From Cryoendolithus antarcticus (Eukaryota > Ascomycota > Dothideomycetes > Cladosporiales > Cladosporiaceae): DNA of 64,000 nucleotides. Shown here piece after piece: positions 31,079 to 32,085 of the stretch; the stretch's first letter is position 1, and every line of letters begins with the position of its first letter. Below the pieces are notes generated by a model, which saw nothing but the letters and a program-made list of their open reading frames with translations, was not told the DNA's origin and ran no database searches. The position numbers were made by a program, and so were the translations under genes. Location: positions 50,556-114,555 of the forward strand of contig NAJO01000079.1 in the NCBI GenBank assembly GCA_002077065.1, written 5' to 3'.

Positions 31079-32085
31079 ATGCACATTCTCTGGCAAACCC
31101 CCTTGCCCTTTGCAATTGTCCTGGGCGGACTTTACTTGGCCACCGCACTACCAGTCTCCCTCCCACCTGCCCAGTACGCGCCTCATGCAGACTTCACAAA
31201 TATCACTCTTTGCCCCGCCGAATGTGCCAAGATACTCCCACCTTCCAGCACCGACCTTCCGCCAACATGGTGTCCCGTCTCCCAGCAGCCTCCAGTAAAC
31301 ATCCGCTATGAGGTGAACTTCAAAGGCGACTGCGTTCTGGTCTCTGGAAACGCGAGGGACGTCTGTCTTAGCATGCCACAGAGCTTGATAGTCGTACCAG
31401 CTCGATCATTCAGGATGGGCGACGAGGTGGAGTGCATGATCTACAAGTAAATCGATCTTTACATTCGACATTACCGCGTTCACTGACAGGCTATAGCGAC
31501 CATGCGTGCACCGGCTCATCTATCTCGATCTCGACACCTTCGAACCCGGACCTTCACGAGAATAGGTGGGCGGCTTGCATCAAATCTCTGTACTGTCGGG
31601 CCCACAAGTTCCATGCTAGATCCACAGGCCTCGCTCCTCGAGATGCGAAGAAGCATCATGATGCCCCTCGTATCGGCGAGCATTGTTGGTGGCAATGGGG
31701 CTGTCTGAAGTCTCGCACCCTCAAGCTCATCTCTCGCTCACCGAAGAAGCACCACGACGCTCCCCGTATCGGCGAGAACTGCTGGTGGCAATGGGGTTGC
31801 CTGAAACGCCGCTATCTCACCTCTACTGTGGCACCTCGCAACGCCGAAGCGAAGAGAGATCACGACCCACCCCGCATCGGCGAGAACTGCTGGTGGCGGT
31901 GGGGTTGTCTTCGTCGCCGCTTCCCAACTAGCACTTCCGCACCAAGCAACCTGCCCAACCCAACTGCGGTACAGAGACACGGTACGACCCCACACTTAGA
32001 GCAACCGAGTACGCCGTTGTTTGTGCCGTTGCCGAGATTCAGCTATGATCCGCCGAAGCAGGAGGGGAGGATGGTAGAGGGTTGA
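31079..32085 (+). CDS. Secreted precursor: cysteine-rich crystallin-like domain plus three Kex2-type peptide repeats
   Basis: Exons 31079-31446 and 31497-32085 join across a 50-nt intron (GTAAAT donor, CACTGACAGGCTATAG end) to encode 318 residues. A signal peptide (MHILWQTPLPFAIVLGGLYL then ATA) is evident. Residues 25-157 contain about ten Cys; the end, VECMIYNDHACTGSSISIS through AACIKSLYC, has the C-x(n)-C-x-G...C layout of beta/gamma-crystallin-like small secreted fungal proteins. Residues 174-264 hold three 18-residue units: HHDAPRIGEHCWWQWGCL, HHDAPRIGENCWWQWGCL and DHDPPRIGENCWWRWGCL. They are preceded by KK, KK and KR and followed by KSR, KRR and RRR, as expected for Kex2-type excision. 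Each unit has two Cys five residues apart enclosing a Trp-rich loop. The RIGENCW part vaguely resembles the second half of filamentous-fungal alpha-pheromones. Function is unknown; pheromone-like signal, RiPP or effector peptides are all possible. Confidence 0.82.
31648..31920 (+). repeat. Three in-frame coding repeats of the peptide precursor
   Basis: Copies lie at 31648-31716, 31744-31812 and 31852-31920 (69 bases each, starts 96 and 108 bases apart). They encode the basic-flanked CWW[QR]WGC units. Between copies 1 and 2, eight codons in the core differ only silently and one differs in the amino acid (His to Asn). Confidence 0.9.

What the first reader, a model, noticed from the sequence alone, without database searches (positions are those of the whole stretch)
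31079..32085. Undescribed Kex2-type repeat precursor with CWW[Q/R]WGC peptides
Seen: a signal peptide, then three 18-residue units of near-identical sequence, each bounded by paired basic residues (KK/KK/KR before; KSR/KRR/RRR after), each with two Cys spaced C-x5-C around a Trp-rich loop. Known: fungal alpha-pheromones, KEP precursors and cyclic RiPPs (ustiloxin-type) share this signal-plus-repeat layout with Kex2 excision. Inference: the gene encodes three secreted, probably disulfide-ringed peptides. The RIGENCW segment weakly echoes the RI-x-GQ[S/P]CW end of known filamentous-fungal alpha-pheromones, but the Cys spacing differs (x5 here, x6 there). No pheromone, RiPP or effector family I know has this core.
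Basis: partly seen in the sequence, partly recalled or inferred. Interest (0 to 1): 0.92.

Follow-up and report, generated by a model that had tools for sequence, protein, structure and literature searches.

The report
Orphan fungal precursor of repeated peptides
A rock-dwelling Antarctic fungus carries a gene that looks built to be cut into three near-identical, tryptophan-rich, probably disulfide-ringed peptides; it is probably not the fungus's ordinary mating pheromone, and what the peptides do is not known.

Summary
Window 31079-32085 is a one-intron gene (exons 31079-31446 and 31497-32085) whose product is identical to NCBI protein B0A48_17968 of Cryoendolithus antarcticus. Five of six unit flanks are dibasic; the 3' flank of unit 1 (KSR) is not. 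A collinear second copy (B0A48_17242) has four units, the fourth degenerate. Among units 1-3 of each copy, 6-10 of about 10 synonymous sites differ but only 1-4 of about 44 nonsynonymous sites: the peptide has been kept by selection. No other relative was found among 5.8 billion proteins. The pheromone reading is disfavoured: the genome has a separate gene pair with conventional C-x6-C pheromone-type repeats. Best reading: a new orphan type of Kex2-processed repeat protein (KEP) releasing disulfide-ringed 18-mers. The N-terminal domain weakly resembles beta/gamma-crystallins (E 0.1-0.15, below cut-off). A self-directed signal function is inferred only; no expression or peptide data were available.

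The parts
31079..31446 (+). Exon 1 of the precursor gene (B0A48_17968)
   Evidence: Splice trial; product identical to the record P0001
31079..31147 (+). Predicted signal peptide, residues 1-23 (cleavage ATA|LP by the -3,-1 rule, recalled)
   Evidence: Hydrophobic stretch, Kyte-Doolittle mean 1.94 over 15 residues, no later membrane-like stretch; SignalP not available
31447..31496 (+). Intron, 50 nt, GT...AG; same place and length in the second genome copy
31497..32085 (+). Exon 2 with the repeat units and stop
31295..31602 (+). N-terminal domain, residues 73-158 (interrupted by the intron); possibly beta/gamma-crystallin-like
   Evidence: Two-copy profile against PDB: spherulin 3A E 0.098 over 82 of 88 positions; Pfam Crystall E 0.15, below cut-off, on the second copy only, none on the window copy; structure models inconclusive
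31648..31653 (+). Dibasic site KK before unit 1
   Evidence: Sequence; kept in the second copy
31654..31707 (+). Unit 1, HHDAPRIGEHCWWQWGCL
31708..31716 (+). KSR after unit 1: not a dibasic site (KFR in the second copy)
31744..31749 (+). Dibasic site KK before unit 2
31750..31803 (+). Unit 2, HHDAPRIGENCWWQWGCL
31804..31812 (+). KRR after unit 2
31852..31857 (+). Dibasic site KR before unit 3
31858..31911 (+). Unit 3, DHDPPRIGENCWWRWGCL
31912..31920 (+). RRR after unit 3
31921..32085 (+). C-terminal tail, residues 265-318, and stop
   Evidence: dN/dS 0.215 between the two copies

Best explanation
The gene encodes a Kex2-processed repeat protein (KEP). The precursor enters the secretory pathway; the two Cys of each unit pair into a seven-residue Trp-rich ring (C-W-W-Q/R-W-G-C); Kex2 cuts after KK, KK and KR upstream and after KR(R)/RR(R) downstream; Kex1 removes the trailing basic residues; ringed 18-mers with a free N-terminal tail, such as HHDAPRIGENCWWQWGCL, are secreted. 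Units 2 and 3 should be released cleanly, unit 1 only with a C-terminal extension or after a second cut. The N-terminal domain is released as a separate secreted product or acts as a pro-domain. Because the peptide is kept nearly unchanged within and between copies, I think it acts on a self target, most likely as an autocrine or paracrine signal of the fungus, less likely as a toxin. Shown: gene, units, dibasic flanks, conservation, presence of Kex2-type genes. Inferred: secretion, cleavage, ring, function.
For: Gene model equals the protein on record. Unit against unit within the window gene: 9.0 of 10.0, 10.0 of 10.3 and 6.0 of 10.3 synonymous sites differ but 1, 4 and 3 of about 44 nonsynonymous sites; units 1-3 of the second copy give 9, 7 and 7 of about 10 against 3, 4 and 4 of about 44. 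Between the two copies dN/dS is 0.047 in the 13-residue cores, 0.24 in the spacers, 0.21 over the gene; nonsynonymous changes core versus rest 3 of 97 against 60 of 628 sites, Fisher p 0.033, with synonymous change not reduced. All five dibasic flanks are kept in the second copy. All six unit Cys are shared by the two copies, whereas only 5 of the 9 Cys before the units are. The fourth unit of the second copy has lost its upstream dibasic site and its second Cys together and differs from units 1-3 of its own copy at 6.0-6.5 of about 44 nonsynonymous sites. The genome has two matches to the P_proprotein domain of Kex2-type proteases.
Against: No expression, peptide or structure data. KK is, as recalled, a poorer Kex2 site than KR, and two of three upstream sites are KK. 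The C side of unit 1 is not dibasic in either copy. The whole gene evolves faster than all nine neighbours measured (dN/dS 0.21 against 0.014-0.147). Spacers keep traces of the same duplication (the DNA repeat is 101 nt at 65-73% identity), so conservation does not stop absolutely at the basic sites. The Fisher test is modest and rests on two sequences. No relative outside this one genome was found, and the signal function has no direct support.
Confidence: 0.72

Rival explanations
1. The peptides are the mating pheromone (Ste2 ligand) of this fungus, a variant in which the disulfide has moved from C-x6-C to C-x5-C.
For: RIGExCW is shared with the T. reesei pheromone WCYRIGEPCW (PMC3068285 passages); two Ste2-type genes and one MAT1-1-1-type alpha-box match are present; the precursor layout is similar.
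Against: The 100 residues read from C46 hold LTLCGYHGMSCAKAKRAADA and a second LTLCGYHGMSCAKAR, the latter without a dibasic site; the start of the frame was not read. BLASTP of P0001 against Trichoderma P0020: best E 0.10, the seven-letter motif alone 0.24. No X-A or X-P dipeptide follows the upstream site in 6 of 6 dibasic-preceded units of the two copies. The GQ or PG dipeptide of most Leotiomycete pheromones (PMC10569646 passages) is absent (GE instead, as in T. reesei; the C46 gene has GM).
Confidence: 0.05
2. The peptides are defensive: an antimicrobial or otherwise antagonistic secreted peptide against microbes sharing the rock.
For: Trp-rich ringed short peptides with Arg recall antimicrobial peptides (recalled); some KEPs are precursors of toxic cyclic peptides (PMC6339444 and PMC7329392 passages).
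Against: The six trimmed 18-mers computed have net charge -1 (five) or -2 (one) without His, unlike typical cationic antimicrobials (recalled); the units are conserved rather than diversified; no UstYa/DUF3328 match on either contig.
Confidence: 0.25
3. The peptides are structural or surface-active at the cell wall, like Rep1 of Ustilago maydis, and serve attachment, hydrophobicity or water retention.
For: Hydrophobic Trp core with polar N-terminal tail; Le Marquer and colleagues speculate on such a role for KEPs of osmo- and xerotolerant species (PMC6339444 passages).
Against: Only three units per precursor and very tight sequence conservation, more than a surfactant would seem to need (judgement).
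Confidence: 0.2
4. No processing: the units are an internal repeat of a Cys-rich secreted protein that stays whole, and the basic residues are linkers.
For: Two upstream sites are KK and one flank lacks a dibasic; disulfides could lie between units.
Against: Units 2 and 3 are framed by dibasic sites on both sides in both copies and spacers change more than cores; the unit that lost its upstream dibasic site also lost a Cys.
Confidence: 0.15

Closest known systems
KEX2-processed repeat proteins (KEPs) as defined by Le Marquer et al. 2019 (PMC6339444) and Umemura 2020 (PMC7329392)
   Same: N-terminal hydrophobic segment and at least three near-identical units set off by KR, RR or KK; lack of a homologue is common in the class (2560 of 7878 KEPs were stand-alone, passages of PMC7329392).
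   Different: Core sequence without match; a 135-residue Cys-bearing N-terminal region; one missing dibasic flank; the window copy fails the KR/RR-first pass.
Filamentous ascomycete alpha-pheromone precursors (CCG-4/PPG1 type)
   Same: Signal-like segment, repeated Cys-paired units, Kex2-type flanks; RIGExCW also in T. reesei WCYRIGEPCW.
   Different: C-x5-C that begins at the Cys of the shared motif, instead of C-x6-C that ends there; no Ste13 dipeptides; lacks the KxKRAAxA and KAKRDL stretches in the consensus of 13 aligned precursors; the genome has its own genes of that kind.
Ustiloxin-type cyclic RiPP precursors
   Same: Kex2-framed repeats.
   Different: No UstYa/DUF3328 match on C127 or C103 (9 match rows on six other contigs); no Tyr in the units; ring expected by disulfide, not by UstY-type oxidation (inference).
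Spherulin 3a / beta-gamma crystallins
   Same: Weak profile match over 82 of 88 positions of the domain, E 0.098.
   Different: Not significant on its own and below Pfam's cut-off; extra Cys; fused to Kex2-type repeats.

Membership tests
KEX2-processed repeat protein (KEP) | ER signal peptide | tested here: inconclusive
   Hydrophobic N-terminus and no later membrane-like stretch; no SignalP run
KEX2-processed repeat protein (KEP) | At least three similar fragments after cutting at KR, RR and KK | tested here: met
   Three unit-bearing fragments of six in the window copy, one of them with a long C-terminal extension
KEX2-processed repeat protein (KEP) | At least three similar fragments after cutting at KR and RR only (first pass of PMC6339444) | tested here: not met
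   Window copy: four fragments, two bearing units. Second copy: three of six fragments bear units (one holds two units, one the degenerate unit), so it may pass
KEX2-processed repeat protein (KEP) | Units fill at least 15% of the protein (PMC6339444) | tested here: met
   Three units of 18 residues in 318, 17%
KEX2-processed repeat protein (KEP) | Excised peptide found in culture | not testable with these tools
   No peptidomics
Ascomycete alpha-pheromone precursor | Unit of the form C-x3-G-x2-C (C-x6-C) | tested here: not met
   C-x5-C in 3 of 3 units; the motif scan gave no match in P0001 and P0002
Ascomycete alpha-pheromone precursor | Ste13 dipeptides X-A or X-P right after the Kex2-type site | tested here: not met
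   HH, HH, DH in the window gene; QH, HH, HH in units 1-3 of the second copy; the fourth unit of the second copy has no dibasic site before it
Ascomycete alpha-pheromone precursor | Sole candidate Ste2 ligand of the genome (supporting, not strictly defining) | tested here: not met
   Separate conventional-type pair on C13 and C46
Ustiloxin-type RiPP precursor | UstYa/DUF3328 gene nearby | tested here: not met
   PF11807 matches at E up to 0.001 on C91, C66, C65, C59, C128, C75 only
Beta/gamma-crystallin domain | Profile match over the curated cut-off | tested here: not met
   Window copy: no Pfam family. Second copy: Crystall 12.6 bits, cut-off 25, E 0.15
Beta/gamma-crystallin domain | Two-Greek-key fold | tested here: inconclusive

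The most novel reading that the evidence does not exclude
A new class of fungal peptide signal: a secreted stress-type beta/gamma-crystallin-like domain fused to a tandem of Kex2-released, disulfide-ringed Trp peptides with an invariant His at position 2 (7 of 7 units of the two copies), which could bind copper(II) through the X-His N-terminus and act as a self-directed signal or metal-handling peptide in a rock-dwelling fungus, with a receptor other than Ste2.
Probability: 0.1. Interest if true: 0.65.

Novelty: new member of a known kind. Interest (0 to 1): 0.42.

Why it matters
KEPs are widespread, but few of their peptides have been detected or studied (PMC9769878 passages). This one is an orphan type in which old, near-saturated synonymous divergence between units sits beside an almost unchanged peptide, good evidence that the peptide, more than the rest of the precursor, is what selection sees. 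It gives exact masses to look for and a natural decayed control unit in the second genome copy. As a by-product it points to the likely conventional alpha-pheromone genes of an Antarctic endolithic fungus.

Tried and rejected
Pheromone reading: followed first. Two DNA patterns for canonical cores gave scattered single matches (32 places against 13 in the backward control; 60 against 54). Of the 32 places, 30 were held as loci; 22 were in frame and their translations showed no Kex2-framed repeats, 8 were out of frame and not translated, 2 were not held. The 60 places were judged by position only: no two lie within a gene's length; none was translated. A query strung together from pheromone cores gave three weak places, E 0.0044, 0.027 and 1.5; two were read and judged chance frames, the third was not read. 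The real pair came from using precursors found as queries. The patterns had missed it because its core has GM where they asked for GQ or GE.

Further paralogues: the only hit of the second copy outside the two genes (L009, E 0.26) is a chance frame. A DNA pattern for C-W-W-[QR]-W-G-C gave 21 places: six exact, three in each copy; one with one mismatch (C60:424269) and fourteen with two, none of these 15 read; backward control 2. So further short copies elsewhere are not excluded.

Structure: whole-protein model pLDDT 33, Foldseek nothing under E 0.001. By my mistake the second structure job was given only the exon 1 half of the domain, 50 residues; its matches are inconclusive, and the absence of crystallins among the rows shown says nothing. 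In the single-sequence PDB search with the second copy the top row was an unrelated ribosomal protein entry at E 0.17, above spherulin 3A at 0.71.

NCBIfam: no family for either copy. The bacterial promoter scan is irrelevant to a fungus. Paper searches for Dothideomycete pheromone sequences and for KEP plus crystallin gave nothing of direct use beyond the papers cited.

Full report
What is there. The finding lies in a 46,965,068-base, 149-contig fungal assembly. Its protein is on record, letter for letter, as hypothetical protein B0A48_17968 of Cryoendolithus antarcticus, a Dothideomycete of the order Cladosporiales, moved from Rachicladosporium in 2023; its type strain came from Antarctic rock (PMC10739867, passages). 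The gene has two exons, 31079-31446 and 31497-32085, and a 50-nt intron.

Anatomy. Residues 1-23 are hydrophobic and end in a plausible signal cleavage motif; no later stretch looks like a membrane helix. Residues 24-158 hold nine Cys. Three 18-residue units follow: HHDAPRIGEHCWWQWGCL, HHDAPRIGENCWWQWGCL, DHDPPRIGENCWWRWGCL, preceded by KK, KK and KR and followed by KSR, KRR and RRR. A tail of 54 residues ends the protein.

More than chance. In 200,000 shuffles of the 62 non-unit residues of 159-274, which include 20 Lys or Arg, the three upstream dibasic flanks recurred in 113 and the full pattern in 2. Duplication makes the flanks dependent, so selection is the better test. Within the window gene, unit pairs differ at 9.0 of 10.0, 10.0 of 10.3 and 6.0 of 10.3 synonymous sites but at only 1, 4 and 3 of about 44 nonsynonymous sites; units 1-3 of the second copy give 9, 7 and 7 of about 10 against 3, 4 and 4 of about 44. 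The degenerate fourth unit is left out of those counts; against units 1-3 of its own copy it gives 6.5, 5.5 and 3.0 synonymous and 6.5, 6.5 and 6.0 nonsynonymous differences. Units 1-3 are therefore old duplicates whose peptide has been held almost constant.

The second copy. Contig C103 carries a homeologue (B0A48_17242, 354 aa) in a block collinear with the window over the 30 kb compared, at 82-87% DNA identity. Pairs on different contigs were also met for Ste2, Kex2-type and pheromone-type genes, so the genome looks doubled or hybrid, although the MAT1-1-1-type alpha box was met once only. Between the copies dN/dS is 0.047 for the 13-residue cores, 0.24 for spacers, 0.41 for residues 25-72, 0.17 for 73-158, 0.215 for the tail and 0.21 overall. 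Nonsynonymous change in cores against the rest is 3 of 97 versus 60 of 628 sites (Fisher p 0.033), while synonymous change is not reduced (9 of 20 versus 68 of 209, p 0.32). Nine neighbouring genes have dN/dS 0.014-0.147, so the gene as a whole evolves faster than all nine, while its cores fall within their range. All six unit Cys are shared, but only five of the nine Cys before the units. The second copy has a fourth unit that lacks the upstream dibasic site (ARN) and the second Cys (WRY), which fits a unit that stopped being released and then decayed; it is a single case.

Relatives. Searches of 5.77 billion proteins with the whole protein (942 candidates, E up to 1) and with the repeat region of the second copy (2776 candidates, E up to 10) returned only the two copies. 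That search needs shared five-residue words, so distant relatives could be missed. The genome itself gave no third copy at E up to 10 apart from a chance frame; a DNA pattern for the ring found the six known places exactly and 15 places with one or two mismatches, against 2 in the control, that I could not read. Pfam and NCBIfam have no family for it. No paper in the library holds the core letters or the two locus tags. The supplementary tables of the two KEP catalogues could not be read, so a listing there is not excluded.

Is it the mating pheromone? The fungus has two Ste2-type genes, one of them with an in-frame stop in the matched stretch, and a MAT1-1-1-type alpha box. I looked for a rival pheromone gene. 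Patterns and a made-up query failed. The second made-up query brought pheromone precursors out of the protein collection (41 proteins at E up to 10 among 724 candidates, not all of them pheromones), one named as from Neofusicoccum parvum, a Dothideomycete (recalled). The 100 residues read from C46 include LTLCGYHGMSCAKAKRAADAVADALASAEPKIKSPLTLCGYHGMSCAKAR: C-x6-C cores, the first followed by KR, the second not; the start of the frame was not read. Two-Cys pheromones are what Le Marquer and colleagues report for Dothideomycetes outside Pleosporales (PMC6339444, passages). So the window gene is very probably not the main Ste2 ligand. It also lacks Ste13 dipeptides in 6 of 6 dibasic-preceded units, and BLASTP against P0020 gives a best E of 0.10, with the motif alone (6 of 7 letters) at 0.24.

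Is it a ustiloxin-type RiPP? UstYa (PF11807) gives nine match rows, none on C127 or C103. Of 34 stop-to-stop ORFs of at least 200 aa in the window, 18 were scanned with Pfam; 17 match families such as ankyrin, DUF1365, PRELI, LepA, catalase, glycosyltransferase, COQ7, ABC transporter and a fungal transcription factor domain, and one matches none. None of the 18 matched UstYa or tyrosinase; the other ORFs were not scanned, and tyrosinase was not searched genome-wide.

The N-terminal domain. Spherulin 3A, a beta/gamma-crystallin of a slime mould (recalled), is the only molecule matched in the PDB by the two-copy profile (E 0.098 and 0.11 for its two entries, 82 of 88 positions). It recurs at E 0.93-0.96 with the window copy alone and at 0.71-0.74 with the second copy alone, there below an unrelated ribosomal protein entry at 0.17. 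Pfam Crystall is the only family for the second copy (E 0.15, below its cut-off) and is absent for the window copy. I take the fold as plausible but unproven; the structure models do not help.

How it most likely works. Signal-led entry to the ER, ring closure between the two Cys of each unit, Kex2 cuts after KK, KK and KR and after KR or RR downstream, Kex1 trimming, and secretion of 18-mers of 2205-2237 Da. Two P_proprotein matches show that Kex2-type protease is encoded. Unit 1 would leave with a C-terminal extension unless another enzyme acts. The trimmed peptides are slightly acidic (-1 to -2 without His), which argues against a classical cationic antimicrobial, and their constancy argues for a fixed self target. 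That last step is inference and I give it modest weight.

Novelty. KEPs are a known kind, and a KEP without homologues is common (2560 of 7878, PMC7329392, passages). Kex2-released peptides joined to a folded secreted domain also have a precedent, the GH128-domain protein of Coprinopsis cinerea (PMC9769878, passages). So this is a new member with a new core, not a new kind.

Noticed in passing
L089 (G000:C46:851957-852256), counterpart at G000:C13:211849-212289: Probable conventional alpha-pheromone precursor pair of C. antarcticus, with repeated LTLCGYHGMSCAKA units; only 100 residues could be read.
   Followed up: partly
L047 and L011 (G000:C139:420002-420917): One of the two Ste2-type receptor genes has an in-frame TGA within the match and is matched in two pieces: an intron, an assembly error or a broken copy.
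   Followed up: no
window 16462-46361 and G000:C103:110001-140000: Collinear at 82-87% DNA identity: the genome looks doubled or hybrid, with homeologues on separate contigs.
   Followed up: partly
L087 (G000:C62:404950-405550), minus strand: An open frame with repeated GCPD-x-[LV]-G units next to an acidic run: an unexamined repeat protein.
   Followed up: no
   Followed up: no
window 31921-32085: The C-terminal tail holds a 21-residue stretch (EQPSTPLFVPLPRFSYDPPKQ) identical in both copies, more conserved than the rest of the tail.
   Followed up: no
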